DNA of 64,000 bases, taken from Alkalicoccus halolimnae. GTDB taxonomy: Bacteria; Bacillota; Bacilli; Bacillales; Salisediminibacteriaceae. The stretch is taken from the NCBI RefSeq assembly GCF_008014775.2, contig NZ_CP144914.1:806001-870000 (forward strand), in the 5' to 3' direction. How positions within the stretch are numbered: the first letter of the stretch is position 1; each line of letters starts with the position of its first letter. Of the stretch, positions 8,690 through 52,168 are shown one piece after another. The position numbers and the translations under genes are program-made. Under the pieces are notes generated by a model. The model had not been told where the DNA came from and made no database searches. It saw only the letters and a program-made list of their open reading frames with translations.

Positions 8690-8876
8690 TCTTCTTTCCT
8701 GTGTTTACCAGCGGAGGCTTTCCCTGGAGTCTGTTTTCAGCTGTTTCCGGCTCGCTGGATAGGGGCGTCAGACTTCACTTGATCCCGAGGAAGTCCCCGT
8801 CGTCCGCTCTGGAAAGCGTTCCTATGGAAACGAAAGCGTACGTTTATCGCTTATCTGCTTTATTTTCAAGGCAGCT
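8690..8876. repeat. Dispersed repeat family A, degraded copy with intact right end
   Basis: The right half (from about 8811) carries the family signature GGAAAGCG, ATGGAAACGAAAGCG, then TTTATTTTCAAGGCAGC. The left half has the CCAGCGGAGGCTTTCC-type sequence seen in other copies in altered form. It abuts the terminator at 8886. Short open frames inside it are products of the repeat, not genes. Confidence 0.75.
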
Positions 8877-8885
8877 AATAAAAAA

Positions 8886-8924
8886 AGAGAAGCCCTGGCC
8901 GATTTTTCCGGTCAGGGCTTCTCT
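8886..8924. terminator. Bidirectional rho-independent terminator
   Basis: Stem AGAGAAGCCCTG / CAGGGCTTCTCT (12 bp, perfect) with an A-run before and T-rich tract after it. It lies between the convergent LOV-STAS gene and the small membrane-protein gene and can serve both. Confidence 0.85.
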
Positions 8925-8975
8925 TTCTTGTTTATAAACATTTTCCATTGTTTCAGTCCTGAAGCAGCAGGAGCT

Positions 8976-9362
8976 TCAAATATCGTCCGGTGTTTTTATA
9001 GCTATAACGAGAAACAAAAAGAAACTGACAGTGAGAACGGTTCCGCTGATGATGTAATAAAGAAGCGTGAAGAGTTCTGGTAAAGGAACGACATCCATCA
9101 TAAAGACGTACATACCGGAACAAAGGCCGATCGTGCCGATAAGGCCGGTCCAGACGTGGATAGTGGTGAGAAGTCCTTTTTTAGGCTTGTATACTTTGTA
9201 GTAAATTGCCCATGAGAATAAAGTCAGCCAGCCGACAACAAGTACGTGGGCGTGAATCGGGCGGAGAGCCGGAGAGCCGGAACCGGCCATGTGGCCTCCC
9301 ATAAACGTACCGATAACACCGAATACTGCTGCAGCGATTAACAGCATTTTACTATGAGACAT
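8976..9362 (-). CDS. Small four-helix membrane protein, haem-copper oxidase subunit I-like
   Basis: 128 residues with four predicted membrane helices. The pattern RPIHAHVLVVGWLTLFSW in helix 2 resembles a haem-ligand helix of the haem-copper oxidase / nitric oxide reductase subunit I family, but the protein is only a quarter of the usual length, so function is open. It is not an obvious fragment: it has its own ribosome site and terminator. ATG 9362 is preferred over ATG 9368 because the GGAG lies only two bases from the latter. No partner oxidase genes lie nearby. Confidence 0.7.
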   Translation of the reverse strand: MSHSKMLLIAAAVFGVIGTFMGGHMAGSGSPALRPIHAHVLVVGWLTLFSWAIYYKVYKPKKGLLTTIHVWTGLIGTIGLCSGMYVFMMDVVPLPELFTLLYYIISGTVLTVSFFLFLVIAIKTPDDI

Positions 9363-9788
9363 GTGCATTGCTCCTTTTTTCGCAAATAATCATACCTTCT
9401 CCAGTATAGTAAAAACTGTCGTGAAGCGCCAAAGAACTTTCTGTGACAGGGAGGTTGATAGTATAATAGACCGACGGATAGATTACTGTACCTGCTTTCC
9501 GATGAATCGGCCTCCATTTTATTAAATACAGGTACCGTTCGGCGTTTGGTCAGGAGCAGGAGCTTCTTATTCACTATCCTGCCTTGAGGAAAACAGGGTT
9601 TACGAAAGAGGTGCATCACCAAAGAAAAAAAGTCCGCTGGAGGAAATAGGCGGAATAATACATAACGATGGCATAAAAATCAGATAATAATAAAGGTTTT
9701 TTATTTGTAATTATTAAAAATAAGCATGTATAATACAAACTGCAGGTTAAAATTAAGATGCACATTTTAAAAGGAGGTCAAACTACAT
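9363..9788. other. Intergenic region upstream of the catalase gene
   Basis: About 425 bp between divergent genes. Apart from the catalase promoter and PerR-like box at its right end I see no coding potential, strong hairpin or family A repeat. A minus-strand open frame here has no ribosome site and unnatural composition. Confidence 0.5.
9705..9734 (+). promoter_or_regulatory. Catalase promoter with PerR-like box
   Basis: TTGTAATTATTAAAA at 9705-9719 matches the PerR consensus TTATAATNATTATAA at 12 of 14 defined positions. It overlaps the likely -35 (TTGTAA, 9705-9710); the -10 TATAAT is at 9729-9734 with an 18-bp spacer. Repressor binding here would block RNA polymerase, matching the known peroxide control of vegetative catalases in Bacillus. 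Confidence 0.65.
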
Positions 9789-11249
9789 ATGAATAGAAAA
9801 TTGACTACAGGACAAGGGGTTCCCGTCCGCGACAATCAAAATTCCCGTACTGCCGGCGAGAATGGACCGATTCTGCTTGAGGACTATCAGCTGATTGAAA
9901 AGCTTGCCCATTTTGACCGGGAGCGCGTACCGGAGCGTGTCGTTCACGCACGCGGATTTGGTGCTCACGGAACATTTAAAGTGGCAAACAGCATGAAAAG
10001 GTATACGAAAGCTGCATTTTTACAGGAAGAAGGGCAGGAAACGCCGATTTTCACACGTTTTTCTACGGTAATTCACGGCAATCATTCTCCTGAAACACTT
10101 CGTGATCCGCGCGGTTTCTCAGTGAAATTTTACACGGAGGAAGGCAACTACGACTTTGTAGGAAACAATCTGCCGGTGTTCTTTATCCGTGACACGATGA
10201 AGTTCCCGGATGTCATTCACTCCCTGAAGCCTGATCCTCGTACAAACGTGCAGGATCCCGACCGTCTGTTTGATTTCATGTCTCTTACTCCGGAATCCAC
10301 CAATATGCTGATGCACCTTTTCTCAGACGAAGGAATTCCGAGAAGCTACCGGACGATGCGCGGTTCCAGTGTCCATGCCTTTAAATGGGTCAATGCCCAG
10401 GGCAACTACGTGTATGTGAAATACAGATGGGTGCCGAAAGAAGGTATTCATAACCTTTCTGAAGCACAGGCAGAAGAAATTCAAGGGAAAGATTTCAACC
10501 ATGCTTCCGTCGACACGTACACGGCGATTGAAGAAGGAAATTATCCGGAATGGGATTTATACGTGCAGATTCTGCAGCCTGAAGATCTCGATGAATTTGA
10601 CTTTAATCCGCTCGATGCTACAAAGGACTGGTTTGAAGACGATTTCCCTTATCACCACGTCGGGACGATGCAGCTGAACAAAAACGTAGATAACTACTTT
10701 GCAGAAACAGAGTCCGTCGGGTTCAACCCAGGAGTGCTCGTTCCGGGTATTGAACCATCTGAAGATAAGATGCTTCAGGGACGTCTTTTCTCCTATTCGG
10801 ATACGCAGCGCCACCGCGTAGGACCAAACTATCTGCAGCTGCCGATCAACTGCCCGTTTGCGCAGGTAAACAACAATCAGCGGGACGGGTTCATGCCTTT
10901 CCGGCAGCAGGAGGATCGTATCAACTACGAGCCGAACCGCTATGAGGATACTCCAAAAGAAGATATGAGCCAGAATGACCATCAGGCTCCGGTTGGTCCT
11001 GTGGCAGGCCGTCAGCCGATCGAAAAGAAAGCAGACTTTCTTCAGCCGCAGATCGTGTGGGATAACTACACGAAAGAAGAGCAGGATGGTCTCGTCAATA
11101 ACCTGACCGGTGCTTTGGGAGATGTACGGGAAGATACACGCCTTCTGCAGATCTGCAACTTCTACCGCGGGTGTGAAGAGCTCGGACGCCGCCTTGCAGA
11201 AAATCTCAATGTAAACCTGGATGAGTATCTGCAGAATATGCACAAATAA
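9789..11249 (+). CDS. katA: Haem catalase, small-subunit type
   Basis: 486 residues, standard length for clade 3 monofunctional catalases, which split hydrogen peroxide to water and oxygen in the cytoplasm. The distal His is in RVVHARGFGAHG (near residue 55), the active-site Asn in YDFVGNNLPVFFIRD, and the proximal haem-ligand Tyr in RLFSYSDTQRHRVGPNY (near 340). A perfect ribosome site (AAAGGAGG) precedes the ATG. Single gene with its own terminator at 11330; PerR control is likely. Confidence 0.97.
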   Translation: MNRKLTTGQGVPVRDNQNSRTAGENGPILLEDYQLIEKLAHFDRERVPERVVHARGFGAHGTFKVANSMKRYTKAAFLQEEGQETPIFTRFSTVIHGNHSPETLRDPRGFSVKFYTEEGNYDFVGNNLPVFFIRDTMKFPDVIHSLKPDPRTNVQDPDRLFDFMSLTPESTNMLMHLFSDEGIPRSYRTMRGSSVHAFKWVNAQGNYVYVKYRWVPKEGIHNLSEAQAEEIQGKDFNHASVDTYTAIEEGNYPEWDLYVQILQPEDLDEFDFNPLDATKDWFEDDFPYHHVGTMQLNKNVDNYFAETESVGFNPGVLVPGIEPSEDKMLQGRLFSYSDTQRHRVGPNYLQLPINCPFAQVNNNQRDGFMPFRQQEDRINYEPNRYEDTPKEDMSQNDHQAPVGPVAGRQPIEKKADFLQPQIVWDNYTKEEQDGLVNNLTGALGDVREDTRLLQICNFYRGCEELGRRLAENLNVNLDEYLQNMHK

Positions 11250-11329
11250 GAGCTTATCCGTAGAATCTATGCTCAGGCGCGTGCATCAGAAAAGATACAA
11301 AAGACCGGTATATAACCGGTAAATAAAAA

Positions 11330-11362
11330 ATGGCCCCTGCCGATTTTTGAAGGCAGGGGTCA
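11330..11362 (+). terminator. Terminator of the catalase gene
   Basis: Stem ATGGCCCCTGCC / GGCAGGGGTCAT, with one wobble, about 80 bp after the katA stop, preceded by an A-run and followed by a T-rich stretch. Between here and 11593 I see only a weakly conserved stretch near 11410-11450 (ACACCTGCGGCTCCTATG), related to one at 45.88 kb. Confidence 0.75.
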
Positions 11363-11593
11363 TTTCTGTATCTGCTATAAAAAAGTTTGACTCTCTTAAA
11401 ATCGAATGTTGATTAAAGAACACCTGCGGCTCCTATGCCTGCCAGGGTGAAAAACCTTCATTAAAATGAATTATCGGCAGTTTCTGTTTTATCCGGTTTC
11501 TTTACAGGGTTGTCCCCTGAATACGTTTTGGTGTTTCGAAAAAACGAAAGGAAGGAAAGATAGTACAATAGATGAAAAGAAGGAGGAATTTGA

Positions 11594-12550
11594 ATGGGAA
11601 AAACGATAGTCATTGCACAGAATATAGGCGAAACGCTCACGAAAGAGGTGGAGCAGGAAGTACCCGGCTGGAAAGTTATCACGGGGAAAGAAAAAGAAGA
11701 CTGGGAACCTTACATAAACGAAGCAGATATTGTAGCAGGCTGGAAACCGGAAATGTTTGAGCAGCTAGCTGACAATGCGCCGCTGAAATGGATACAGACG
11801 TGGAGTGCGGGTGTTGATAATCTGCCGCTTACCTCGTATGAACAGGCAGGATTCTTACTGACCAGTGCGAATGGGGTGCATGCTTATCCGATATCCGAGA
11901 CAATATTCGCTTTTCTTTTAGGATGGACGAGAAAAATGCACGCCTATATCCGTCAGCAGCAGAAAAAAGAATGGCATCATGCGCATTTAAAAGGAGAAAT
12001 TCACGAAAAAACGATTCTCATCTACGGGGTAGGGGCGATTGGAAAAGAAACGGCGAAAATAGCGAAAGCGTTCGGGATGCACGTTATTGGAGTCAGACGT
12101 ACGAAAAAAGAAACGCCTGAAGCAGACGAGACACTTACGTTTGAAGAAGCGTCCTCCAGGCTTGCGGAGTGCGATTATGTCGTTAATACGCTGCCATCTA
12201 CAGAAGAGACAAAGCAGTTGTTTACGAAAGATTTATTTGAAAAAATGAAAGAGGAAACCTTTTTCGTCAACATTGGACGGGGAGACACCGTGGACGAAGA
12301 AGCGCTGCTGTCTGCTTTACAGAAGGGAGACATCGCAGGAGCCGGACTGGACGTCTTTTCAGAGGAGCCCCTTCCCGAAGATCATCCGTTCTGGACGATG
12401 GACAATGTCATCATGACCCCCCATACAGCTGGATCGACAGGGATTTATCACGAGCGTGTTATCCGGGACATTTTTATTCCCAATCTTCGTTCCTATGTAA
12501 ATGGCAGAGAGCTGCCGGTGAACCGGGTCGATTATAAGGCCGGATATTAA
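11594..12550 (+). CDS. D-2-hydroxyacid dehydrogenase
   Basis: 318 residues of the NAD-dependent D-isomer 2-hydroxyacid dehydrogenase family. The Rossmann motif GVGAIGKETAKIAKAFG lies near residue 143, the substrate-binding Arg is in NIGRGDTVDEEALL (near 230), and the catalytic His in MTPHTAGS (near 279). It probably reduces a 2-keto acid to a D-2-hydroxy acid; the exact substrate is not visible and there is no pathway neighbour. AAGGAGG ribosome site, monocistronic. Confidence 0.9.
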   Translation: MGKTIVIAQNIGETLTKEVEQEVPGWKVITGKEKEDWEPYINEADIVAGWKPEMFEQLADNAPLKWIQTWSAGVDNLPLTSYEQAGFLLTSANGVHAYPISETIFAFLLGWTRKMHAYIRQQQKKEWHHAHLKGEIHEKTILIYGVGAIGKETAKIAKAFGMHVIGVRRTKKETPEADETLTFEEASSRLAECDYVVNTLPSTEETKQLFTKDLFEKMKEETFFVNIGRGDTVDEEALLSALQKGDIAGAGLDVFSEEPLPEDHPFWTMDNVIMTPHTAGSTGIYHERVIRDIFIPNLRSYVNGRELPVNRVDYKAGY

Positions 12551-12587
12551 AAGATCGCAGAGCAGACTCTCCGGCATACTTTCAGAG

Positions 12588-12780
12588 TGTTGATTAAGTA
12601 AAGAAAGAAGTCTATGTATTCTATTCCGTGTATTTTCTCCTTCGCTTACCGGCGGAAGCCTGCCGTGGGGCTTGTCTTCAGCTCTTTTCAATGCCTGACT
12701 GCATTGGAAAGGATCTTCAGACGGCGCTACCAACCCACTGGCGTCCCCGCCGGACACGGCAGAGAAAATCACCTTTTTTA
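12588..12780. repeat. Dispersed repeat, type B copy
   Basis: It begins TTGATTAAGTAAAGAAAGAAG, then CCTTCGCTTACCGGCGGAAG, and ends GAGAAAATCACC, as does the copy at 36375-36600. The centre has a perfect stem CTTTTCAATGC (12684-12694) / GCATTGGAAAG (12701-12711), one wobble, followed by GGATCTTCAGAC, the same layout as the hairpin in the 51.5 kb copy but with a different stem sequence. Confidence 0.7.
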
Positions 12781-12940
12781 TAGGAGAAACCTGTCGTACG
12801 CTTGTTCTCGCAGCAAAGTCTTTCTTTTTGTTCAAATGCTGGCTGGAGCTGTAGAAGATGACTCCGGAAAGCGGCTCTTCGAAAGTGGACACAGCCGACT
12901 GTCTACTTATACAGGAAAAATTACTTTGTAAACAGCCTGG

Positions 12941-12974
12941 AAAGCCTTCATGACAAACGTCATGAAGGCTTTTT
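12941..12974 (+). terminator. Hairpin with T-run in a repeat-rich gap
   Basis: Stem AAAGCCTTCATGAC / GTCATGAAGGCTTT followed by T residues. It is a good terminator by structure but lies about 390 bp beyond the nearest gene end. Similar hairpins occur at 15561 and 36343, each also next to repeat copies. Confidence 0.6.
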
Positions 12975-12987
12975 AACGTCCTTTTTT

Positions 12988-13478
12988 GAAGGCTGTGTTT
13001 AAGTCTGTGGTTCTTACACAAAAAAGGGAACTTGGCTTTCCGACTTACGATTACAGAAGGTAACTTCACTTAAAAAGCTGGTGGGGCAGGCTTAAACGAT
13101 AGAGGTTTTAAGGGGGGAATTATCTTTTTGTCAAATATAGTTTATTTTCCCGGGAATGCGTAAGAATCAAGTCTGTTGTTGATACATGTAGAACACTCCG
13201 CTTCAGCTCTGCCGTGGAGGAGATCTCCGGAAGGCATACGTCCTGCGGGATCTTCCAATCTCCTTCTACCACGAGCACGTTTCTGCTTTGTTATTCTTCA
13301 TGGAACGAGAAGTCCTTCTGTTTTTCATGAGCTATATTTTTCATTCCGTAAAACGGGTGTCAGGGCAGAGATGCCTTTGGAAAAAGAAAGCGGGAAAGTC
13401 CTCCCGGAAAGCGTTCCCAAGGAAACGAAAGCGTACGTCTATCGATTATCTACTTTATTTTCAAGGCAGCCTGCCGGT
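12988..13478 (+). repeat. Dispersed repeat family A copy, split by a 160-bp element
   Basis: The left end (CTGTGTTTAAGTCTGT) is separated from its continuation (AAGTCTGTTGTTGATACATG) by the inserted element at 13009-13168. The rest runs through a central variable part, GGAAAAAGAAAGCGGGAAAG (shared with 51.75 kb) and the right-end signature CCCGGAAAGCG, GGAAACGAAAGCG, TACTTTATTTTCAAGGCAGCC. Open frames inside are not genes. Confidence 0.75.
13009..13168 (+). mobile_element. 160-bp MITE-like element with 8-bp target duplication (copy 1)
   Basis: Terminal inverted repeats GGTTCTTACACA (13009-13020) and TGCGTAAGAATC (13157-13168). The 8-bp direct repeat AAGTCTGT flanks it at 13001-13008 and 13169-13176. 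The interior is non-coding and resembles 35766-35902 and, inverted, 48614-48774. TIRs starting GGYTCTT with 8-bp duplications are typical of the ISL3 family, so this is probably a non-autonomous derivative moved by an ISL3-type transposase. Confidence 0.8.
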
Positions 13479-13698
13479 TCTTCATAAACCTTACATAAAG
13501 GATAAAACCAAGAAAGATTGACTTATTATTTCGGTTGTCGTAATATTAGGAAGCGAATTAATTATTGTCAAAATGCAGAAAGATTCACTTCTTAATTTAA
13601 AAGGGAATCTTCGTTACCGCCTTGAATTTCAGCTCAGCTGCGAAAGCGGCAGAGCAGATTCAGCCGGTGCTTTTAAACGTGAAGGGTGTTTTATAAAA

Positions 13699-15544: not shown

Positions 15545-15560
15545 CAGCTTCGTCGGCGTC

Positions 15561-15595: not shown

Positions 15596-15626
15596 CGTGC
15601 TTTCGTATTATCTGTGTTAAAGTCTG

Positions 15627-15818
15627 GGCTCTTACGCATATAATGGGAATCGTACCTGTTCTTTATTATTTACAGTCTGCTTCTTCTCTATAAAAGCCGC
15701 TCCATTCCGCCCGACCGAAGCGAGGACGGAATTAGCTGACTCCGGCCCGCCCGGAAAGCGTCCCCATGGAAACGAAAGCGCCCCTTTATCACTTATCAAC
15801 TTTTTTTCAAGGTAGCCT
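15627..15818. repeat. Repeat remnants: MITE end plus family A right half
   Basis: GGCTCTTACGCA at 15627-15638, preceded by TTAAAGTCTG, looks like a stranded end of the 160-bp element at the same target as copy 1. From about 15700 the family A right half follows: ATTCCGCCC / GGACGGAAT hairpin, TTAGCTGACTCCGGCCCGCC, CGGAAAGCGTCCCCATGG and TTTTTTTCAAGGTAGCC. From 15819 to the promoter of the next gene I see nothing recognisable. Confidence 0.65.
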
Positions 15819-16993: not shown

Positions 16994-17141
16994 GAGCTGT
17001 CCCGTAAGGATAAGGGGGGACGGCTTCGCACGGACAAAAGCCTGTTAGACAAATCGCTGTCTAACAGGCTTTTTTACATCTTGTCCGGCTCCGCGCGTGC
17101 TTTCCAGGCTGTCTCGATGTACCTTTTGAGACAGCCTCTTT
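16994..17141. terminator. Composite two-hairpin terminator unit (copy 1 of a 150-bp repeat)
   Basis: Begins GAGCTGTCC, then GGCTTCGCACGGACAA. First hairpin AGCCTGTTAGAC / GTCTAACAGGCT (perfect 12 bp) plus T-run; then TTGTCCGGCTCCGCG, which can pair back to CGGACAA; then a second hairpin AGGCTGTCTC / GAGACAGCCT. The same unit, diverged, is at 34336-34491. It lies between convergent genes and can stop both. Confidence 0.8.
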
Positions 17142-17794: not shown

Positions 17795-17879
17795 AAAAAG
17801 CACCGCTTTCTATAAATAATTTCGTCCAGTATATCATATTAAAAAGCTCTGTTTGTTATATAGAAAATTTGTTGCATGT

Positions 17880-18388
17880 GGAGGAGCTGCATGCGCTTTA
17901 TAACACCATCAAACTCTAACAGGGACAATCATGCAAAATAGCTGCATCATGATCGAAGAAAATGACGTTCAAAGTTTTATATTCAAGGCCGCCTTTGTTT
18001 TATAAGATAGCTCTGTTAAAATCCAGCATTGATAAATGTAGAAAACTTCGCTGCAACTCGGCAAGCGAAGAGACACTCATGCAGGATCGCTGCACCATGA
18101 CGGATGTAAATAGCCTTCTTCTATGGGAATGGAGCTTCCCCTATATTCAGAGGAATCACCGATGTTCAAGAAGGAGTTTCTTTATTAGAAGGCAGATGCT
18201 GTCCTGTCTTTTACCGTAAGCTGGAGTGGACATGGGGCGACTCCAGGGCGATGAAGGACGAGTTGAAGATCCATTCCGCCCGACGGAAGGGAGGACGGAA
18301 TTAGCTGAGGCCGGCCCGCCCGGAAAGCGTCCCCATGGAAACGGAGGCCCACGTTTATCGTTTATCTGCTTTATTTTCAAGACAGCCT
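17880..18388 (+). repeat. Dispersed repeat family A: left remnant plus a complete copy
   Basis: 17880-17950 resembles the middle module (AACAGGGACAATCATGCAAAA). ATTCAAGGCCGCC (17982-17994) is the right end of a lost copy. A full copy runs from about 18009 (AGCTCTGTTAAAATCC) through AGACACTCATGCAGGATC, TTTACCGTAAGCTGGAGTGG, hairpin ATTCCGCCC / GGACGGAAT, GGCCGGCCCGCCCGG, GGAAAGCGTCCCCATGG, to TTTATTTTCAAGACAGCC at 18388. Confidence 0.75.
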
Positions 18389-18480: not shown

Positions 18481-18600
18481 CGGCCTCCTTCTTTCTGAAG
18501 TGAATGGCGGGGACTCCTGCGGGATTGAAGACGATCCCCGCGGAAAGCTTCCAGGGGTGAGAACAGGAAAGAAAAGAACCACTACTCATACAGAAAAAAG
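18481..18600. repeat. Dispersed repeat, type D-like fragment
   Basis: GGGACTCCTGCGGGATTGAA followed by GACGATCCCCGCGGAAAGC resembles the short type D module at 29523-29612. CTCATACAGAAAAAAGGAAA nearby recurs near 12.9 and 36.3 kb. Non-coding. Confidence 0.55.
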
Positions 18601-20979: not shown

Positions 20980-21115
20980 CCTCCGGTTCAGACGGACACT
21001 TTCCCAAAGGCTTGTCTCCAGCTCTGTCTTTTTACCATAAGCTGAAGTGGACATGGGGCGACTCCGGGGCTATGAAGGACGAGCACCACCCCGCACGACC
21101 GCAGGAAGGAAAAAG
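20980..21115 (+). repeat. Dispersed repeat family A, central fragment
   Basis: CTCTGTCTTTTTACCATAAG, CTGAAGTGGACATGGGGCGA, CTCCGGGGCTATGAAGGACG are the central part of family A; the right end is missing. The rest of the 20574-21266 gap (20620-20970) is AT-rich with no feature I can name. Confidence 0.7.
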
Positions 21116-29433: not shown

Positions 29434-29522
29434 TCACCTGAATCAATTTCATACTATACTTTTCAAGTTATTTTAACGAACATGTTATCAGTTTATAATG
29501 TGAATATTCGTATATAAAATCG

Positions 29523-29612
29523 AATGATTGAAACGGCAGACGGCGGCTCCGGCGGGATGAAGACGAGCCCGCGGAAAGCGTCCGTCTGAAGTGGAAATCA
29601 TTCACCATGTTC
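29523..29612 (-). repeat. Dispersed repeat, type D (short form)
   Basis: Read on the minus strand it runs GAATGATTTCCACTTCAGAC, GGACGCTTTCCGCGGGCTCG, TCTTCATCCCGCCGGAGCC, then CCGTCTGCCGTTTCAATCATT. The copy at 51473-51615 is the same sequence with a hairpin-bearing insert. Sequences of this kind are common in Bacillaceae intergenic regions. Confidence 0.75.
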
Positions 29613-29708
29613 GTAAATCCCTTTCTAATAGCGACTTATGAAATTGATTCACCTGATAAATTAATTTATGTTTGTAATGAAATAAATAGATAGAAGGAGG
29701 TATTCTAC

Positions 29709-31290: not shown

Positions 31291-31687
31291 AGCTGTGTTA
31301 AAGTCTGTTTGTTGATACATGTAGAAAACTCCGCTCCAACCCGGCAGGCCCACCAATAACAACACGGAGCTTTAACAGAGACACTCATGCAGAAGCCTTG
31401 CACCATGAGGCATGAAAATGGCTTTCTTTGGGAATGGATCCCCCATCTATACAGGTGGAATCAATGATATCCAGAAGAGGTCTTCTTTATTAAAGATAGA
31501 CCTCCTGTTCTGTCTTTTTTACCGTAAGCTGCAGTGGACATGGGGCGGCTCCGGGGCGATGAAGGACGAGCCGAAGATCCATTCCGTCCGACCGCAGGGA
31601 GGACGGGATTAGCTGAGGCCGGCCCGCCCGGAAAGCGTCCCATGGAAACGAAAGCGCATGTTTATCTACTTAATTTTCAAGGTAGCC
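31291..31687 (+). repeat. Dispersed repeat family A, complete uninterrupted copy (about 397 bp)
   Basis: Best reference copy. Left end AGCTGTGTTAAAGTCTG directly after a terminator; CACGGAGCTTTAACAGAGAC (the site that carries a MITE at 48.6 kb); CACTCATGCAG; TTTACCGTAAGCTGCAGTGG; CATGGGGCGGCTCCGGGGCG; hairpin ATTCCGTCC / GGACGGGAT; GGCCGGCCCGCCCGG; GGAAAGCGTCCCATGG; right end TTAATTTTCAAGGTAGCC. No start codon with ribosome site or sustained open frame. Confidence 0.85.
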
Positions 31688-31703: not shown

Positions 31704-33545
31704 TTATTTTCGTTTCTTTTTATCAGTTTCATTATCTTCGTCCTTCAGCTGTTCTTCAAGGTCGTCACGAAGATCATTGTAAATTTTATCCTTAAACTCT
31801 TCGTAAACTTCTTCTTTAATATCGTCATAAACTTCATCTTTCACCTGTTCGTAAACTTCCTCTTTCATCTCCTCATATACATCTTCGCTGATGTATTCTT
31901 CCCGGAGGTTTTCTTTCATATCTTCTCTTATATCTTCCCTTACATCTTCACGGACATCATCATAGACGTTATCTTTCATACCGCCGTAAACTTCATCTTT
32001 CACACGGCGGCGTTCCTGTTTTCGTCCCCTCAGCTTTTCAATCTGTAAATCTTTCGTCATCATAATCAGCAGGGAAAACAGCATGACAATCATAATGACG
32101 GCAAAAGGGAGCGCCGCAACAATGGAGGCGGTCTGAAGGCCCTCCAGTCCACCGCTGAGCAGAAGCACGCTGGCTGTACCGGCAATGAGAAAGCCCCAGA
32201 TAACTTTAATGGAAAGCTTTGGACTCAGGCTGCCACTGCTCGTCATAGCTCCAAGCACGTAGGAGGCAGAGTCGGCAGAAGTGATAAAGAAAATAATAAT
32301 CAGAAAGACGGCGAGTGTACTCGTTATGCCAGCCAGCGGGAGTTCACCAAGGGTGGCAAACAGGGCCAGCTCCACTTCTTCCATAACGAGATCACCAATG
32401 ACATCGTTTCCTCCAATAATCAGATCAAGCGCTGTTCCGCCGAAAGCTGTAAACCATAGGGCAGCCAGCAGGGACGGAACGATCAATACGCCGGCGACGA
32501 ATTCGCGGATCGAACGTCCACGTGAAATACGGGCGATGAAAATTCCCATAAACGGAGCCCAGGAAATGTGCCAGGCCCAGAAGAAAATGGTGTTATTTCC
32601 GAGCCATTCTCCGTCTCCGAATGGATCAAGGTCGAGGCTCATCGTCACCACGTTGGATATATAGCCCCCGATAGTCGTTACAAAACTCTGCGCTATAAAG
32701 AGCGTTGGCCCGACGATAATAACAAATACGAGAAGCAGACCGGCAATGACGAGGTTAATGGAACTGAGAATTTTAATCCCTTTATTAACACCGGTAGCTG
32801 CAGAAAAGATAAATAAACAAGTGACAATAAAAATGATCGACATCTGGGTAAAGGCGTTGTTTTGAATTCCGTCAAATAAGTAGGACATACCGCCGGAAAT
32901 CTGCAGTGCACTAAGACCAAACGTCGTCGCTACCCCGGTGGAAGTTGCCAGTACAGCGAGAGTATCTATCCCTTTGCCGAAAGCTCCGTAGGCACGGTCA
33001 CCTAAAATAGGCTGAAAAGCAGAGCTTATCAGAGCAGGCTGATCCTTGCGGAATTGAACGTAAGCGAGTGTCAGCGCAACGAGGGAAAAAATCGCCCATG
33101 GATGCAGAGCCCAGTGAAACACGCCGTACCGCAGTCCTGCCGAAGCCTGGGTGGATTCACCGGTACCGACGTAATCCGGATGGGGATCAAAGAAATAAAG
33201 GACAGGTTCGGCCACTCCCCAGAAAACAAAGCCGACCCCGATTCCGGCAGCGAACAGCATGCCGAGCCATTGGAAGAAGTTGAATTCCGGTCTTTCATCC
33301 GGCTTACCAAGTTTTAATTTACCGAATGGACTTACAGCCAAAAAGAGTATAAAAGCAATAAAGAAAGCTGTTGAAAGCATGTAAAACCAACCGAAATTGT
33401 TAAGGGTGAAGGCAAGCCCCTCACTTGAACGGGCTGCCAGCGAGTCAGGGCCGAAGAAACCCCACACGACAAAAGCCGCAACCAATGGTGCTGAAATAAA
33501 AAACACAATACTTGGTTTTTTTGTTTCATACTCATACTGGCTCAT
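31704..33545 (-). CDS. BCCT-family glycine betaine/choline-type transporter with repetitive charged tail
   Basis: 613 residues. Twelve membrane helices span about 10-505; GIGVGFVFWGVAEPVLYFF near residue 98 and the Trp-rich substrate helix FFWAWHISWAPFMG near 325 are family signatures. It imports quaternary-ammonium compatible solutes with Na+ or H+. The last 110 residues are a cytoplasmic tail of tandem octads of the form VYxx(M/V/I)(K/R)x(E/D), for example VYEEMKEE, VYEQVKDE, VYDDIKEE. In BetP the C-tail senses osmotic stress; this one is longer and more regular. Confidence 0.92.
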   Translation of the reverse strand: MSQYEYETKKPSIVFFISAPLVAAFVVWGFFGPDSLAARSSEGLAFTLNNFGWFYMLSTAFFIAFILFLAVSPFGKLKLGKPDERPEFNFFQWLGMLFAAGIGVGFVFWGVAEPVLYFFDPHPDYVGTGESTQASAGLRYGVFHWALHPWAIFSLVALTLAYVQFRKDQPALISSAFQPILGDRAYGAFGKGIDTLAVLATSTGVATTFGLSALQISGGMSYLFDGIQNNAFTQMSIIFIVTCLFIFSAATGVNKGIKILSSINLVIAGLLLVFVIIVGPTLFIAQSFVTTIGGYISNVVTMSLDLDPFGDGEWLGNNTIFFWAWHISWAPFMGIFIARISRGRSIREFVAGVLIVPSLLAALWFTAFGGTALDLIIGGNDVIGDLVMEEVELALFATLGELPLAGITSTLAVFLIIIFFITSADSASYVLGAMTSSGSLSPKLSIKVIWGFLIAGTASVLLLSGGLEGLQTASIVAALPFAVIMIVMLFSLLIMMTKDLQIEKLRGRKQERRRVKDEVYGGMKDNVYDDVREDVREDIREDMKENLREEYISEDVYEEMKEEVYEQVKDEVYDDIKEEVYEEFKDKIYNDLRDDLEEQLKDEDNETDKKKRK

Positions 33546-34335: not shown

Positions 34336-34491
34336 GAGCTGTCCGATAAGCACAGAGCACAGGGGCACGGCTTCGCACGGACAAAAAACCTGATAGACAA
34401 ATACTCGTCTAACAGGCTTTTCAGCACCTTGTCCGGCTCCGCGTGTGCTTTCCAGGCTGTCTCGATATTCCTTTTGAGACAGCCTTTTTTT
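34336..34491. terminator. Composite two-hairpin terminator unit (copy 2 of a 150-bp repeat)
   Basis: Same order as 16994-17141: GAGCTGTCC, GGCTTCGCACGGACAA, hairpin CCTGATAGAC / GTCTAACAGG (one mismatch), TTGTCCGGCTCCGCG, hairpin AGGCTGTCTC / GAGACAGCCT with a long T-run. The spacer sequences differ between the copies while the stems are kept. Confidence 0.8.
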
Positions 34492-35589: not shown

Positions 35590-35697
35590 TCTCTCTAAAA
35601 TGGAGGGAGAGCGGGGTTAGCTGAGGCCGGGCCTGCCCGGAAAGCGTCCCCATGGAAACGAAAGCGCACGTTTATTGCTTATCTACTTTATTTTAAA
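35590..35697 (+). repeat. Dispersed repeat family A, right-end fragment
   Basis: GGGGTTAGCTGAGGCCGGGC, GGAAAGCGTCCCCATGG, AAACGAAAGCGCACG, TACTTTATTTTAAAG. It runs head-to-tail into the next copy, so two copies are tandem here. Confidence 0.7.
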
Positions 35698-36228
35698 GCT
35701 CTGTTAAAGCATTCTGTTGTTGATATATGTAAGAAAACTTTGCTTCAACTGACCTGCCGTGTAGGAGCTTTCCAACTTACGATTACAGAAGGTAACTTTA
35801 CTTTAAAAGTTGGTGGGCCAGGCTTAAACGAAAGAAGTTTTAAGGGTTAAATTAGCTTTTTTGTCAGATGTAGTTTATTTTCCCCAAATGTGCGTAAGAA
35901 CCTGAAGCTTTAACAAAGACACTCATGCAAAATCCTTGCACTATGAGGAATGAAAATGACCTTCTATAGGAATGGAATGCCCTCTATCCAGGTCGAATGA
36001 AGGATGGTCAGAAGGGGCTTCTTTATTAGAAGGCAGATCCTGGTCCATATTTTACTGGCCGCTGGAGTGGCCATGGGGTGACTCCAGGGCGATCAAGGAC
36101 GAGTCGAAGATCCATCCCGTCCGACCACAGGGAGGACGGGATTAGCTGAGGCCGGCCCGCCTGGAAAGCGTCCCCATGGAAACGAAAGCGCACGTTCACC
36201 GCTTCTATACTTTATTTTCAAGGTAGCC
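35697..36228 (+). repeat. Dispersed repeat family A, full copy carrying a MITE
   Basis: Left end GCTCTGTTAAAGCATTCTG, then the MITE copy at 35766-35902, then GAAGCTTTAACAAAGACACT, CACTATGAGGAATGAAAATG, the perfect hairpin ATCCCGTCC (36114-36122) / GGACGGGAT (36134-36142), GGCCGGCCCGCC, and right end ACTTTATTTTCAAGGTAGCC. Confidence 0.8.
35766..35902 (+). mobile_element. MITE-like element, left-truncated (copy 2)
   Basis: From AGCTTTCCAACTTACGATTA it follows copy 1 (13009-13168) closely, through GGCTTAAACGAAAGAAG and TAGTTTATTTTCCCC, to the terminal TGCGTAAGAACC at 35891-35902. The left terminal repeat and about 25 bp are missing, replaced by repeat sequence. The right flank TGAAGCTT resembles the target of copy 3. 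Confidence 0.7.
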
Positions 36229-36342: not shown

Positions 36343-36381
36343 CTGAAGCCTCCATGAAAACGCTTGTCATGGAGGCTTCAG
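36343..36381. terminator. Perfect 15-bp hairpin downstream of the GerMN lipoprotein gene
   Basis: CTGAAGCCTCCATGA / TCATGGAGGCTTCAG without a long T-run. It may end minus-strand transcription from 36514 or be part of the type B repeat, since hairpins of this kind also occur at 12941 and 15561. Confidence 0.5.
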
Positions 36382-36600
36382 AGTATTGATTCAATAAAGA
36401 AAGAAGTACATTCATTCTATTCCTTGTATTTTTTCCCTTCGCTTACCGGCGGAAGTCTGCCGTGGAGGAGCTCTCTTCTTCCGTTAAGAAAGAGGAGAAC
36501 CGCACCAGCTTTTTTAATATTCTTCGTAGTTATCCGGGCTGTCTGCTTCAATCGGCCGGCTTAAATCAAGGTGGCCGAGAAAATCACTTGTTTCTTCCCC
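36375..36600. repeat. Dispersed repeat, type B copy
   Basis: GAGTATTGATTCAATAAAGA, then CTTCGCTTACCGGCGGAAG and TGCCGTGGAGG match 12588-12680. GAGAAAATCACTTG near 36575 matches the other end at 12770, but that part lies inside the 3' end of the GerMN gene, so the true right border is unclear. Confidence 0.55.
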
Positions 36601-44324: not shown

Positions 44325-44329
44325 GGCTG

Positions 44330-44402
44330 TTTTGAAAATAAAGCAGGTAAGCACTGAACGTACGTGAGCTTTCGTTTTCAGGGGGACGCTTTCCGGGCAG
44401 GA
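44330..44402 (-). repeat. Dispersed repeat family A, inverted right-end fragment
   Basis: Read on the minus strand it ends CGGAAAGCGTCCCCC, GAAAACGAAAGC, ACCTGCTTTATTTTCAAAACAGCC. It is wedged between a terminator and the end of the RocR-like gene. Confidence 0.7.
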
Positions 44403-44405
44403 TCC

Positions 44406-45782: not shown

Positions 45783-46060
45783 CTAATAACCCCCATTAGC
45801 TTTTCTTGTGTATTACCTGTTTCTATAAATTCAGCTCTGTTAGTGCTTAGTATCATTATTAAAGAGTACCTGCCGCTCTTATGCGGAAGCATAGTCTGCC
45901 GTCACAAACAAAAGCTGAAAGACTTCAAATTGAATACGCTTCATTCTATTATATATGTTGAACAAAGGAACTGGAAAATCGTAATTACATCTTTCAGGAA
46001 AGCTGAGTAAAGTCTGTGGTTAATACGCATAGAAGACAGTGATCTTCTTTTATAATAGCT
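45783..46060. other. Divergent control region, left part
   Basis: Upstream of the RocR-like gene. Near 45870-45900 a stretch with ACCTGCCGCTCTTATGCGG resembles the one at 11.41 kb, probably a decayed repeat. No gene seen. Confidence 0.4.
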
Positions 46061-46165
46061 GCCTTGAAAATAAAGTAGATAAACGATGAACGGGCGCTTA
46101 CGTTTCCATGGGGGCTCGTCCTTTACAGCCCTGGAGTCGCCCCATAACCACTCCAGCTTACGGTA
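46061..46165 (-). repeat. Dispersed repeat family A, inverted, internally deleted
   Basis: GCTGCCTTGAAAATAAAGTAG at 46061 onward is the inverted right end; it jumps from CATGGGGGCTCG directly to TCCTTTACAGCCCTGGAGTC, skipping the hairpin, and ends ACTCCAGCTTACGG. Confidence 0.7.
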
Positions 46166-46196
46166 TATAAAGATAGTAGAAAGAATAAAAAGATAA

Positions 46197-46310: not shown

Positions 46311-46482
46311 AACAGTTAGAAATGGGACCCTGTATATAGATGGTACGACAAAGTAAGGCCGATTGAAACAGACTCAATCCGGGAATGGCATAAGTAGAGG
46401 CCAAATCAGATATCAGCAGTGCAGTGGCTCTTTTCAGATAGGAAAATAGAGAACACATAATGTGAAAGGGGATGGAAAGTGT

Positions 46483-47388: not shown

Positions 47389-47406
47389 CAGATGGGATGT
47401 GTCAGG

Positions 47407-48309: not shown

Positions 48310-48359
48310 AAAGCAATAAAAGCAGAGGCCAGCAGAGCTGCAAACTTTATTCATACACC

Positions 48360-48393
48360 GAAAGCCCTGATGAGAACCTTCATCGGGGCTTTC
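48360..48393 (+). terminator. Terminator of putM-rocF
   Basis: Stem GAAAGCCCTGATGA / TTCATCGGGGCTTTC, one wobble, about 50 bp after the stop. Confidence 0.8.
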
Positions 48394-48473
48394 TAATACT
48401 GCAGTACAACATGTTGGCGGATTCATTCACCCTGTTTAAAAATGAACGTAAAACAGTGCCTTATAAAATGGCT

Positions 48474-49088
48474 TTGTCAAGTCTGTTGTTGATAAATACA
48501 GAAAACTCCGCTGCAACCCGGCAGGCTTGACGTGGAGGAAATTTCCATCTTCCTCAGGCTTTCTCCGCGGCAGTCGGAGGAGCCGCAGGCACGCCAAAAA
48601 TAAGCCGCAGCTTGGTTCTTTAGCACTTTTAGGGAAAATAAACTATATTGACAAAACAGCTAATTTAATTCTTAAAACTTCTTTCGTTTAAGCCTGGCCC
48701 CCAGTTTTTTAAATAAAGGTATCTTCTGTCATCGTAAGCCGGAAAGCCAACTCCTCCTTTTTCGCGTAAGAGCCCGGAGCTTTAACAGAGACATTCATGC
48801 AACATCTTTGCACCATGAGGCATGAAAATGGCATTTCCCTCTGTACAGGCAGAATCAGTGATGTTCAAGAAGGGGGTTTTTTAGGAGAAGGCAGATGCTG
48901 CCCGGTCTTTTTACCGTAAGCTGGAGTGGACATGGGACGACTCCGGGGCGGTCAAGGCCGGGCTGAAGATCCATTTCTTCCAAACTGAAGGGCGGAAGAA
49001 ATTAGCTGAAGCCGGCCCGCCCGGAAAGCGTCCCTATGGCAGCGAAGGCGGAGGCTCATCGCTTAAATGCTTTATTTTCAAGGCAGTC
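48474..49088 (+). repeat. Dispersed repeat family A, full copy carrying an inverted MITE
   Basis: Left end TTTGTCAAGTCTGTTGTTGA, a variable GC-rich part with GAGGAGCCGCAGGCACGCCA (also at 51.8 kb), the MITE at 48614-48774, CGGAGCTTTAACAGAGACAT, TTTACCGTAAGCTGGAGTGG, the perfect hairpin ATTTCTTCC (48973-48981) / GGAAGAAAT (48994-49002), GCCGGCCCGCCCGG and right end TTTATTTTCAAGGCAGTC. Confidence 0.82.
48614..48774 (-). mobile_element. 161-bp MITE-like element with 8-bp target duplication (copy 3)
   Basis: Ends GGTTCTTTAGCA (48614) and CGCGTAAGAGCC (to 48774) are inverted repeats. Flanks CGCAGCTT (48606-48613) and CGGAGCTT (48775-48782) match at 7 of 8. Read on the minus strand it aligns over its whole length with copy 1. 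The same host site without insertion is seen at 31369-31384 and 51835-51850. Confidence 0.82.
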
Positions 49089-49176
49089 TATGAAATAAAT
49101 AATATAAGTTAGGAAGCGGCCCTTTATTTCAAATGGACCTGCTTGTGACGTTTATATGAAATGGAAGCGTACGTCA

Positions 49177-49231
49177 TTGACCTTTTTAAAAAGTATGTGC
49201 TATACTTCAATAGAAATGAAAATCATTCTCA
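49177..49231 (+). promoter_or_regulatory. Promoter with Fur box before the iron-type ABC ATPase
   Basis: TTGACC (49177-49182), 18-bp spacer, TATACT (49201-49206). TGAAAATCATTCTCA at 49217-49231 matches the 7-1-7 Fur box TGATAATNATTATCA at 12 of 14 defined positions and covers the start of transcription, so iron repression is likely. Confidence 0.72.
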
Positions 49232-49352
49232 ACTACATTTTAACGATTCTAAATAAGCTTTTTTATCCGCTTCGTACATAGAAAGCGGGTTTCTCTATGA
49301 AGGCCTGTCGTGTTTTATAAATCGGATTGCAGGAAGTACAGGGGGAAATGGT

Positions 49353-50411
49353 ATGAGCTTTATTCAACTTGATAATATTACGAAAGCATTTTCAGATAAG
49401 GGCCGGCCCGCCGTTGATAAACTTAGCCTGAAAATAAACCAGGGTGAAATTGTTTCTCTCCTTGGACCGAGTGGCTGCGGCAAAACGACCACTCTCCGGA
49501 TGATTGCCGGTTTCGAAAACCCTTCAAACGGCAGAATAAGCATCGATGGAGCAGCAATCGTTAACGAAGCAAGAGCTCTTCCACCGGAGAAACGCGGCAT
49601 TGGAATGGTGTTCCAGGACTATGCTTTATTTCCGCACATGACGATCGCTAAAAATGTTATGTTCGGACTTAATAAATGGAAAAGCCGAGATAAAAAAGCG
49701 AGGGCACAGGAAGTGCTGGAGCTGGTCGGGCTGGAAGAATATGCTGATAGGTTTCCAACGCAGCTTTCAGGCGGTCAGCAGCAGCGGGTAGCTCTTGCAA
49801 GAGCGCTCGCTCCGAAGCCCCACGTCGTACTGATGGATGAACCGTTCAGTAATCTCGATGCGGGACTGCGCGAAAAAATGCGCTTTGATGTGACGAACAT
49901 TCTCCGCCGCGCCAACACGACTGCAATTATCGTCACACATGATCAGAAAGATGCTTTTGCTGTTTCCGACCGGGTTGTCGTCATGAATGAAGGCGTTATT
50001 CAGCAAATTGCAGCACCTAAAGAAATGTACCGCTGTCCGAAGAACTGTTTCGTCGCCCAGTTTGTCGGCAAGACAAATCTCCTGACCGGGAAAATGGATC
50101 ATGATCTTCGTAACATTCATACTCATATAGGGAAAGTGGCACTTCCGGAGGAGTCGAAGGAACGCCTCGAAAGCGTGACGCTTTCTATCCGGCCGGAAGG
50201 GTGTATGCTTTCAGAACAGGGAGCTTTCTGCGGCGTTGTGGAAAGAGTAACTTACGGCGGGGAGTATCAGGAGCTGCACGTACGGCTTCATAATGAACCG
50301 GAATTATCGAAGGCTCCAATGATTATTTACGCGCCGGTAGAACAGGACGTAGAAATAGGTGCGATAGTTTCTTTCGATATTAAGCCCGAACTTGTAGCTA
50401 TGGTAGAGTAA
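49353..50411 (+). CDS. ABC transporter ATPase, Fe3+/spermidine/putrescine type, orphan
   Basis: 352 residues. Walker A GPSGCGKTTTLRMIAGFE near residue 38, Q-loop in GMVFQDYALFPHMT, signature LSGGQQQRVALARAL, Walker B VVLMDEPFSNLD, then a C-terminal TOBE-like domain (about 240-350) as in FbpC and PotA. The Fur box points to ferric iron import. Its binding protein and permease are not adjacent, so they must be encoded elsewhere or be supplied by another system. Own promoter and terminator. Confidence 0.88.
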   Translation: MSFIQLDNITKAFSDKGRPAVDKLSLKINQGEIVSLLGPSGCGKTTTLRMIAGFENPSNGRISIDGAAIVNEARALPPEKRGIGMVFQDYALFPHMTIAKNVMFGLNKWKSRDKKARAQEVLELVGLEEYADRFPTQLSGGQQQRVALARALAPKPHVVLMDEPFSNLDAGLREKMRFDVTNILRRANTTAIIVTHDQKDAFAVSDRVVVMNEGVIQQIAAPKEMYRCPKNCFVAQFVGKTNLLTGKMDHDLRNIHTHIGKVALPEESKERLESVTLSIRPEGCMLSEQGAFCGVVERVTYGGEYQELHVRLHNEPELSKAPMIIYAPVEQDVEIGAIVSFDIKPELVAMVE

Positions 50412-50421
50412 TAAGAGGTTG

Positions 50422-50455
50422 AAAACGATCCCTTGTCGGGGATCGTTTTTTTTTT
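50422..50455 (+). terminator. Terminator of the ABC ATPase gene
   Basis: Stem AAAACGATCCC / GGGGATCGTTTT followed by a run of T, 11 bp after the stop. Confidence 0.9.
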
Positions 50456-50565
50456 GCTGCGGATATGCTGAATGAAGAGATACGATAGCTTTCCTAATAC
50501 AGACAGCGTCTGAATATCTGTATGTCCCGCGTGAAAAAAGACAATGGAATACGAGACTGATTCAA

Positions 50566-50607
50566 AAAAGATGCCGGTTCAGGACTAGTCCTGAACCGGC
50601 ATCTTTT
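50566..50607 (-). terminator. Terminator of the rhomboid gene
   Basis: Near-continuous 18-bp palindrome AAAAGATGCCGGTTCAGG / CCTGAACCGGCATCTTTT with a 6-base centre, just beyond the rhomboid stop on the minus strand. Confidence 0.88.
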
Positions 50608-50616
50608 GTAATCCAT

Positions 50617-51381
50617 TCAGCGGAAAAACAAGGTATCTATGACAAAGAAAAAGGCGATCATAAGCAGAGCGGTACCAGCGATATAGTACCAGATTCTCTT
50701 TTTAAAACGAGCCTTCTTGCGCCAGCGGTCCGGATCAAATCCGATATCATCAGGATCATGAATATTCCTTGTTACGAACTGATCCTCGTAGCGGACCCGC
50801 GAAAGGAAAAGAGGGGCAAGGAGAGCGCCGGAAATAAGGCCGAAGATGTGAGCGATAATATTGATTCCCGGGTTTATAAAAGTCATGATAACACCGACAA
50901 TGATAATAACTGTAATCATCTGGGCGTTTACATTGGAAATCAGGTCTTTACGTACGAGCACCATGTAGATGTAAACTCCGAAAAGGCCGAAAACTGCTCC
51001 GGAAGCTCCCAGGTGGTAAGTCATTGGATTGCCGAGAAATAAATAGACGATATTGGCAAGGATGCCTGTACCCAGGTAAATAAGCAGAAAGCGTAAGCCT
51101 CCGAGCATCCGCTCCAGTGCCGGGCCGAACAGGAAAAGCGCAAAAGAGTTGAACGCGACGTGCGCGAGGCCGCCGTGCAGGAAAATAGGGGTGACGAGGC
51201 GCCACCATTCCCCTAAGGAAATGAAGAAGTTATTGCCAATACCGAGCATCCGGATCTCGGCCCCGCCAAGAAACGTAAAAATATCTGTCCATATATAGAA
51301 AAATAAATTAATTGCAATAATTACAGTGACTACTTTATAAAACCTTATGTATTCACTGAAACTTTCGTTACGGAGAAACAA
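50617..51381 (-). CDS. Rhomboid-family intramembrane serine protease (YdcA-like)
   Basis: 254 residues, six membrane helices plus a seventh near the C-terminus. The catalytic Ser is in LGASGAVFGLFG (helix 4, near residue 130) and the His in INIIAHIFGLISGALL (helix 6, near 178); the L1 loop has EWWRLVTPIFLHGGLAHVAFN. It cleaves membrane proteins within the bilayer; the substrate is unknown. B. subtilis carries a rhomboid gene, ydcA, just before acpS, so the position is conserved although here it is on the opposite strand. Confidence 0.9.
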   Translation of the reverse strand: MFLRNESFSEYIRFYKVVTVIIAINLFFYIWTDIFTFLGGAEIRMLGIGNNFFISLGEWWRLVTPIFLHGGLAHVAFNSFALFLFGPALERMLGGLRFLLIYLGTGILANIVYLFLGNPMTYHLGASGAVFGLFGVYIYMVLVRKDLISNVNAQMITVIIIVGVIMTFINPGINIIAHIFGLISGALLAPLFLSRVRYEDQFVTRNIHDPDDIGFDPDRWRKKARFKKRIWYYIAGTALLMIAFFFVIDTLFFR

Positions 51382-51472
51382 AATATCACATCCTTAATAG
51401 AATAGGGTTCTGTTTGCTGTCTTTATTTACTTGAACCCATTTCAAAAGTCGCTGTAAGAAAAGGGTTTCCGG

Positions 51473-51615
51473 ACATGATGAATGATTTCCACTTCAGGCG
51501 GACGCTTTCCGCGGGGCTCGTCTTCAACTCATTCTTCCAGTGCTGTGCAATGGAAGAATGGATTTTCAGACTTCGCTCAATTCCGCCGGAGCCCCCTTCT
51601 GCCGCTTCAATCATC
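51473..51615 (+). repeat. Dispersed repeat, type D with hairpin insert
   Basis: Matches 29523-29612 (minus) as AATGATTTCCACTTCAGGC, GGACGCTTTCCGCGGGGC, then at TCTTCAACT the two diverge: here about 54 bp are inserted, holding the perfect hairpin CATTCTTCCA (51530-51539) / TGGAAGAATG (51551-51560) and GGATTTTCAGACTTCGCTC; after that TCCGCCGGAGCC and GCTTCAATCAT resume. Confidence 0.78.
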
Positions 51616-51650
51616 CGACTTGATATACGAATAGTTTCCTAAGGCGTCCG

Positions 51651-52168
51651 CCGGTTTCCGCTTCGTTTTGACGGTCGATTACAGAAAGGCCGTATATTGA
51701 ACAAAGAATGTACCAAGGTAGAAGCCAGTGCCAGGGCAGAGACGCTGCGGAAAAAGAAAGCGTGAAGATCGTCCCGGACGCCAGGGGAGCCGCGTGCCCG
51801 GCAGGCGGAGGAGCCGCAGGCACTCCAAAAACAACACGGAGTTTTAACAGAGACCCTCATGCAGGATTGCTGCACCATGAGGCATGAAAATGGCCTTCTA
51901 TAGAATAGAAAGGGAATTTATCCTCTATACAGACGGAAGGAGGTCAGAAGGGGGCTTCTTTATTTAGAAGGCAGCTCCTGCTCTGTCTTTTTACCGTAAG
52001 CGGAAGAGGACATGGGGCGACTCCGGGGCGATGGAGGACGAGCCGAAGATCCATCCCTCCCGACTGCAGGAAGGAAGGGATTAGCTGAGGCCGGCCCGCC
52101 CGGAAAGCGTCCCCATGGAAACGAAAGCGCACGTTCATTGCTTCAATACTTTATTTTCAAGGCAGCCT
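51651..52168 (+). repeat. Dispersed repeat: module E joined to a family A copy
   Basis: 51651-51745 matches 2511-2606. Then GGAAAAAGAAAGCGTGAAGA (as at 13.38 kb), GAGGAGCCGCAGGCACTCCA (as at 48.57 kb), the uninterrupted site CACGGAGTTTTAACAGAGAC, the central block with hairpin ATCCCTCCC / GGAAGGGAT, GGCCGGCCCGCCCGG, GGAAAGCGTCCCCATGG and right end ACTTTATTTTCAAGGCAGCC. From 52169 to 52350 no further repeat was seen. Confidence 0.8.

What the first reader, a model, noticed from the sequence alone, without database searches (positions are those of the whole stretch)
8690..52168. Mosaic dispersed repeat superfamily fills most long intergenic gaps
At least eleven gaps carry the same right-end signature (CGGAAAGCGTCCCCATGG, GAAACGAAAGCG, TTTATTTTCAAGGCAGCC), with full copies of about 400 bp at 18009, 31291, 35697, 48474 and 51780 and fragments at 8690, 13400, 15700, 20980, 35590, 44330 and 46061. 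Modules are recombined: modules B, D and E occur with or without the A block. None has a sustained open frame, and the copies occur in both orientations. Function and mode of spread are not apparent.
Basis: seen in the sequence. Interest (0 to 1): 0.78.

Follow-up and report, generated by a model that had tools for sequence, protein, structure and literature searches.

The report
Mobile repeats with shared folded core
The gaps between genes hold many small transposons that were probably moved by an enzyme this genome no longer has, and many of them carry a folded, conserved core that recurs in unrelated mobile elements of related bacteria and whose job is unknown.

Summary
The repeats are real: 175 copies of the 29-base signature (up to 3 mismatches) in the 3.69 Mb genome, 0 in the reversed control. 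The shell is a MITE family: inverted ends GGCTCTGTTAAAG (alpha) and GGCTGCCTTGAAAATAAAG (beta), 8-bp target duplications (19 of 86 facing end pairs exact; 43 of 20,000 random pairs). In two sister genomes alpha ends with exact 8-bp duplications bound IS1595-family insertion sequences; this genome has no match to that transposase. An ISL3-type MITE nested in an alpha end explains part of the mosaic. The unexpected part is inside: a ~114-base core with strong compensatory changes (27 of 29 pairs). A model of it matches in 80 of 150 genomes of the order and 32 of 200 of the class, in shells with unrelated ends, behind an IS66 transposase, and as a bare ~125-base repeat. No Rfam family reaches threshold; the S. 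aureus sRNA entry tsr24 matches below threshold. G-U pairs are rarer than in ten tRNAs, which hints at selection on DNA or both strands; other counts are less clear. MITE/IS1595 reading firm; structured core firm; its function and means of spread open.

The parts
2407..2655 (+).
   Evidence: profile match, E 1e-35
8704..8806 (-). divergent core
   Evidence: model R1, 39.4 bits
8804..8875 (+). beta-end fragment
   Evidence: profile match
   Evidence: model R1, 69.5 bits
12991..13471 (+). composite: alpha-like end, nested ISL3-type MITE, A-block part, beta-end part
13009..13168 (+). nested MITE with ISL3-like ends (GGTTCTTACAC ... GCGTAAGAATC), flanked by AAGTCTGT at 13001-13008 and 13169-13176
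   Evidence: read from the sequence; ends as in ISL3 elements
15610..15817 (+). 208-bp alpha-beta element with exact 8-bp duplication TTCGTATT
17872..17970 (+). fragment
   Evidence: profile match
18010..18387 (+). composite copy with internal deletion; core at 18228-18341
18501..18558 (+). weak core-like match
   Evidence: model R1, 26.2 bits
21017..21111 (+). fragment of the core region
   Evidence: model R1 21.5 bits at 21049-21109
29438..29652 (+). second MITE shell (inverted ends TTGAATCAATTTCATAA-like) with a core remnant at 29534-29592
31291..31687 (+). 397-bp alpha-beta element, duplication 6 of 8; core at 31536-31648
35592..35698 (+). core/beta fragment
35697..36228 (+). 532-bp alpha-beta element with exact 8-bp duplication TATTTTAA; core at 36069-36182
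44325..44401 (-). beta-end fragment
46058..46176 (-). copy with internal deletion
   Evidence: two profile matches, 46058-46115 and 46113-46176
48475..49086 (+). composite; core at 48928-49042
51491..51604 (-). core of the 'classic' type, 90.8 bits
51635..52167 (+). longest composite in the window; core at 52008-52121, 132.1 bits

Best explanation
Two layers. (1) Shell: a non-autonomous transposon (MITE) family with alpha and beta inverted ends and 8-bp target duplications, moved in trans by an IS1595-family transposase that two sister genomes still carry and this genome does not, so the copies here are probably stranded and decaying. Nested ISL3-type MITEs, internal deletions and recombination between copies give the mosaic. 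Shown: ends, duplications, autonomous IS1595 elements with alpha ends in the same genus, the nested insertion. Inferred: that this transposase moved the MITEs, that it accepts the beta end, and the recombination. (2) Core: a folded module of about 114 bases (closing stem, conserved GACTCC and GGAAAGC strands of an internal loop, conserved GAAGATCC-like and TAGCTGA-like strands, variable hairpin) under selection for pairing and loop sequence. It is a passenger of this shell: A-only copies without it have exact duplications. It also occurs in other shells, behind an IS66 transposase, and bare. My best guess for how it works, about 0.4, is as folded single-stranded DNA recognised by an unknown protein; an RNA role is next at about 0.3.
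For: Ends and duplications: 19 of 86 exact, 7 more at 7 of 8; sister genomes: 3 of 10 facing pairs at 7 or 8 of 8. Autonomous partner: L128 (alpha both ends, TTTAAATT twice, 363-aa frame) and L127 (TTTTCATA twice, 367-aa frame); alpha-ended elements with exact duplications and IS1595 transposases in Bacillus T33-2 and Priestia abyssalis. Five A-only elements with exact duplications. Core: covariation; spread; carriers. DNA hint: 7 G-U against 490 Watson-Crick cells in 19 cluster consensuses, 15 against 204 in ten tRNAs (Fisher p 0.00025).
Against: No IS1595 transposase in this genome, so the partner is inferred from sisters; the beta end was not seen on an autonomous element; one of the three sister IS1595 loci (L126) has other ends. 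The ends were found by eye first: seven of the 19 exact duplications had been seen. Against DNA: in the own-genus alignment G-U exceeds A-C (37 to 16, plus one column with 31 G-U), in the wide set 23 to 15; tsr24 is catalogued as an sRNA. The G-U control is ten tRNAs only. No protein that binds the core is known; the covariation alignment is fitted to the model.
Confidence: 0.6

Rival explanations
1. The core is a functional RNA (regulatory RNA, mRNA-stability or terminator-like element, or part of a transposon's own control) carried by MITEs.
For: Strong covariation; conserved loops; homology to the S. aureus sRNA entry tsr24; G-U above A-C in the own-genus set; position behind an IS66 transposase frame.
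Against: G-U pairs scarce in consensuses; no transcript data here; orientation to genes not analysed.
Confidence: 0.3
2. The pairing is kept by DNA repair, not selection: template switching within imperfect palindromes corrects one arm from the other and mimics compensatory change.
For: Near-exclusive Watson-Crick pairing; the mechanism is recalled, not tested.
Against: Asymmetric internal loops and bulges stay conserved in sequence across genera, which arm correction would tend to erase.
Confidence: 0.15
3. The cores are large REP-like elements moved by a RAYT (Y1-type) transposase.
For: One RAYT-like protein in this genome (L031, Y1_Tnp 20.7 of 23 bits); core and RAYT co-occur somewhat (56 both, 24 core only, 36 RAYT only, 34 neither; odds ratio 2.2, p 0.029).
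Against: 7 of 17 genomes with 20 or more core matches have no RAYT match; the shell has 8-bp duplications.
Confidence: 0.07
4. The alpha-ended MITEs derive from an ISL3-family IS.
For: An ISL3 element in L085 lies between two GGCTCTGTTAAAG sequences.
Against: Its ends are GGTTCTTACG; read from that border, three ISL3 copies (L111, L112, L117) lie inside alpha ends with their own 8-bp duplications.
Confidence: 0.03

Closest known systems
IS1595-family insertion sequences and their MITEs
   Same: 8-bp, A/T-rich duplications and GG-starting inverted ends; IS1595 transposases bounded by alpha ends in two sister genomes; passages on the family and on ISApl4
   Different: no transposase in this genome; a second end type (beta); heterogeneous insides with a foreign folded core
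bcr1-bcr3 repeats of the Bacillus cereus group
   Same: interspersed, mobile-looking, high-copy repeats of a Bacillus group (passages)
   Different: bcr1 mobility is tied to TTTAT repeats in the passage; sequences not compared
Bhal-1 stem-loop family of B. halodurans
   Same: 74-bp intergenic folded repeat, 36 copies (table passages); may be part of the core
   Different: sequence not seen, so the link is untested
Rfam RF02577 tsr24 (S. aureus sRNA)
   Same: its consensus contains the core motifs in order
   Different: below Rfam's threshold (35.9 of 50 bits); described as one sRNA, not as a dispersed element
REP/REPIN-RAYT systems
   Same: many folded repeats per genome
   Different: core is high-copy in genomes with no RAYT match; recall only for the system's details

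Membership tests
MITE | terminal inverted repeats | tested here: met
   alpha-alpha strong, alpha-beta imperfect
MITE | target-site duplication of fixed length | tested here: met
   8 bp; 19 of 86 exact against 43 of 20,000 random
MITE | short and without a transposase gene | tested here: met
   174-839 bp among exact or 7-of-8 pairs; no transposase domain was sought in every copy
IS1595-related MITE | autonomous IS1595 with the same ends | tested here: met
   L127, L128; L111, L117
IS1595-related MITE | movement by that transposase | not testable with these tools
   needs an experiment
IS6-related | IS6 transposase in the genus | tested here: not met
   0 of 8 genomes
ISL3-related (alpha shell) | ISL3 element ends equal to alpha | tested here: not met
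   ends are GGTTCTTACG
REP/RAYT | RAYT present wherever the repeat is abundant | tested here: not met
   7 of 17 high-copy genomes lack a match
Rfam family (any) | match at gathering score | tested here: not met
   window: tRNAs only; 16 other loci below threshold
Functional RNA | transcript of the core | not testable with these tools
   no RNA-seq here
Functional RNA or ssDNA | compensatory pair changes beyond controls | tested here: met

The most novel reading that the evidence does not exclude
The core is a mobile unit in its own right: a folded single-stranded DNA module of about 115-125 bases, recognised by an unknown protein, that spreads through chromosomes of Bacilli and boards unrelated DDE transposons (IS1595-type MITEs, an IS66 element, others) as vehicles.
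Probability: 0.2. Interest if true: 0.9.

Novelty: new variant of a known kind. Interest (0 to 1): 0.66.

Why it matters
If it is an RNA it would be among the more numerous structured RNAs of Bacilli; if it acts as DNA it points to an unknown recognition system. Either way it makes testable why unrelated transposons carry the same passenger.

Tried and rejected
IS6 as partner: 0 of 8 genus genomes. ISL3 as partner: looked right, rejected. In one search the script's own duplication column, set 18 bases too far out, showed no match; read at the GGTTCTTACG border, 6 of the 8 loci with both ends have an 8-bp duplication (L111, L112, L113, L117, L120, L125), L110 and L114 do not, and only L111, L112 and L117 lie in alpha ends with a duplication. 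RAYT as required mover: rejected. RNA-mediated 5' truncation, suggested by copies that lack the left half: set aside when duplications appeared at both ends. Own core in plasmids and phages: no match at E 1e-5. Bare core of G343: 5 plasmid records; three were opened and look chromosomal in gene content, two were not opened; phages none. Core of G308 in plasmids: none. Clustering of cores: 8 adjacent pairs within 600 bases against 4.1 expected, not pursued. Duplication of the second shell: not resolved. Two genomes with single weak matches (G072, G114) show none, where fewer candidates were scored. Gene context of the cores and strand relative to genes were not analysed further. My notebook says 13 core matches in the window; the call shows 12.

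Papers: ten searches, seen as listings; only 15 of 68 papers were listed, 20 of 46, 10 of 39. Passages only were read of PMC2267715, PMC6542083, PMC8101967, PMC12561309, PMC10969869. 'Not in print' means not found by these. Recalled and not tested: REP/RAYT and quasi-palindrome mechanisms, IS66 end sequence, the guess that the genus is Alkalicoccus-like, f56 Staphylococcus-like and f49 Planococcaceae-like, and a memory of similar repeats in other Bacillaceae.

Full report
Observation. The 29-base signature with up to 3 mismatches occurs 175 times in the 3,694,897-base genome (92 forward, 83 reverse), and 0 times when the pattern is read backwards (100 places were listed). A profile of 18 long copies gives 24 matches in the window, 3,604 bp. 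It covers 22.9 kb of 464 kb, 4.9%; the stretches were not drawn at random. Rfam at gathering scores gives only ten tRNAs in the window.

Borders and duplications. Aligned copies reach 650-690 bp. The left end is [A/G]GCTCTGTTAAAG (alpha). A-only units end in CTTTAACAGAGCC, the inverted alpha; composites end in TTTTCAAGGCAGCC (beta). Of 86 facing end pairs 80-1500 bp apart in 572,713 bases, 19 have an exact 8-bp duplication, 7 match at 7 of 8 and 7 at 6 of 8. Of 20,000 random pairs of the same ends, 43 were exact and 94 matched at 7. Seven of the 19 had been noticed by eye before the test, so the ends were not chosen blind. In the window 15610-15817 and 35697-36228 have exact duplications and 31291-31687 matches at 6 of 8. 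In sister genomes 3 of 10 facing pairs match at 7 or 8.

Partner. IS6 (PF13610) has no match in 8 genus genomes. IS1595 (PF12762) has no match in this genome and three in two of the other seven. L128: 1,546 bp, alpha at both ends, TTTAAATT on both sides, 363-aa frame. L127: 1,813 bp, alpha at both ends, TTTTCATA on both sides, 367-aa frame and a further 179-aa frame. L126 has other ends. The left end of L128, GGCTCTGTTAAAGCCTGTTGTTGATATTAG, is close to MITE ends such as that of L042. In Bacillus T33-2 (L111) and Priestia abyssalis (L117) alpha ends with exact flanking duplications (TTTTGTTA, TATAAAAA, read) enclose IS1595 transposases (208.4 and 206.2 bits, cut-off 75). Passages give 8-bp duplications for the family and A/T-rich ones for ISApl4.

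Nested ISL3 elements. ISL3 copies with ends GGTTCTTACG lie inside alpha ends with 8-bp duplications of their own: AAGAACAA (L112) and AATAATAT (L117) in Priestia, ATTATATT (L111) in T33-2. The L085/L110 copy lies between two alpha ends without a duplication. Window unit C (13009-13168) has the same kind of ends and is flanked by AAGTCTGT on both sides. This explains part of the mosaic.

The core. In 38 own-genus sequences 18 of 21 predicted pairs show changes on both sides. Cells paired are 93.9%, against 38-56% when slid; cells changed on both sides 134, against 35.0 +/- 4.6 shuffled; covariation 0.530, against 0.199 shuffled and 0.06-0.12 slid; the structure was predicted on that alignment. 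In 49 distinct sequences from many genera the figures are 27 of 29 pairs, 277 against 68.7 +/- 6.7, and 0.501 against 0.142 shuffled and 0.06-0.09 slid; that alignment was fitted to the model. The model, from 29 sequences, gives 69 matches at E 0.01 in the 464 kb, 12 of them in the window. It matches in 80 of 150 genomes of the order, 49 of 83 genera (at most 25 candidates scored per genome), and in 32 of 200 of the class, 18 of 95 genera, 27 of the 32 outside the order. G007 has no BLAST match to the own core but 25 model matches, the cap, so different subfamilies seem to have expanded in different genomes.

Carriers. The core is not found in the IS1595 loci L126-L128, and five A-only MITEs have exact duplications, so it is not needed for the shell's movement. 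A second shell, with ends like TTGAATCAATTTCATAA, was seen at six places in the own genome, one in the window, and at one in G119. A third, with other ends, was seen at one place in each of G004 and G005, perhaps the same insertion. In G001 the core follows the end of an IS66 transposase frame (PF03050, 64 bits) and precedes an IS66-like right end; L228 holds a shortened form with GAACGACC on both sides. In G343 the aligned repeat is only 125 columns long. In G139 flanks look like terminator hairpins repeated on both sides (by eye). Own core in plasmids and phages: no match.

RNA or DNA. Consensuses of 19 clusters have 490 Watson-Crick, 7 G-U, 1 A-C and 20 other cells; ten window tRNAs have 204 and 15 (Fisher p 0.00025). 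In raw alignments G-U and A-C are 23 and 15 in the wide set and 37 and 16 in the own-genus set, where one further column holds 31 G-U. The first comparison leans to DNA or both strands, the last to RNA. Rfam tsr24 matched 6 of 10 loci below threshold and 2 of 6 at E 1.6-2.7; on L200 it aligns over its full length, 35.9 of 50 bits, E 1.4e-6 for 381 bases, with the core motifs in order. I read tsr24 as an S. aureus member of the core; its primary paper was not found.

RAYT. One RAYT-like frame lies in this genome. Over 150 genomes 56 have both, 24 core only, 36 RAYT only, 34 neither (p 0.029), but 7 of 17 genomes with 20 or more core matches have none.

Verdict. The shell is a new member of a known kind, an IS1595-type MITE family. 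The shared folded core, spread over Bacilli in unrelated carriers, is the new part. Its structure and range are shown; its function, and whether it moves by itself, are not.

Noticed in passing
L085, L111, L112, L113, L114, L117; own L091: The ISL3 transposase is split into two frames at about the same place in these copies, which suggests programmed frameshifting; own L087 has a stop there in one frame.
   Followed up: partly
L111, L112, L117; window 13001-13176: ISL3 elements and an ISL3-type MITE sit at a similar position inside alpha ends, as if alpha were a preferred target.
   Followed up: partly
L127 2114-2650; L117 3858-4271; L111 249-800 (-): Alpha-ended IS1595 elements carry extra frames of 179, 137 and 183 aa, possible passenger genes.
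   Followed up: no
L031 1429-2091: Single RAYT-like protein (220 aa) with a sub-threshold Y1_Tnp match and DVH where HxH is recalled as usual.
   Followed up: partly
window 17036-17141 and 34384-34489: Another repeat pair, 87% alike, not part of this family.
   Followed up: no
window 12581-12668 and 36377-36465: Another repeat pair (85-92%), next to the divergent core at 12645-12756.
   Followed up: no
window 31704-33545 (-): 613-aa frame with 24-base repeats (family D6).
   Followed up: no
window 62869-63903: Cluster of ten tRNA genes.
   Followed up: no
G264 contigs C8, C9, C24 at 32-137: Cores 32 bases from contig ends, as if the core lies near the end of a longer identical repeat.
   Followed up: no
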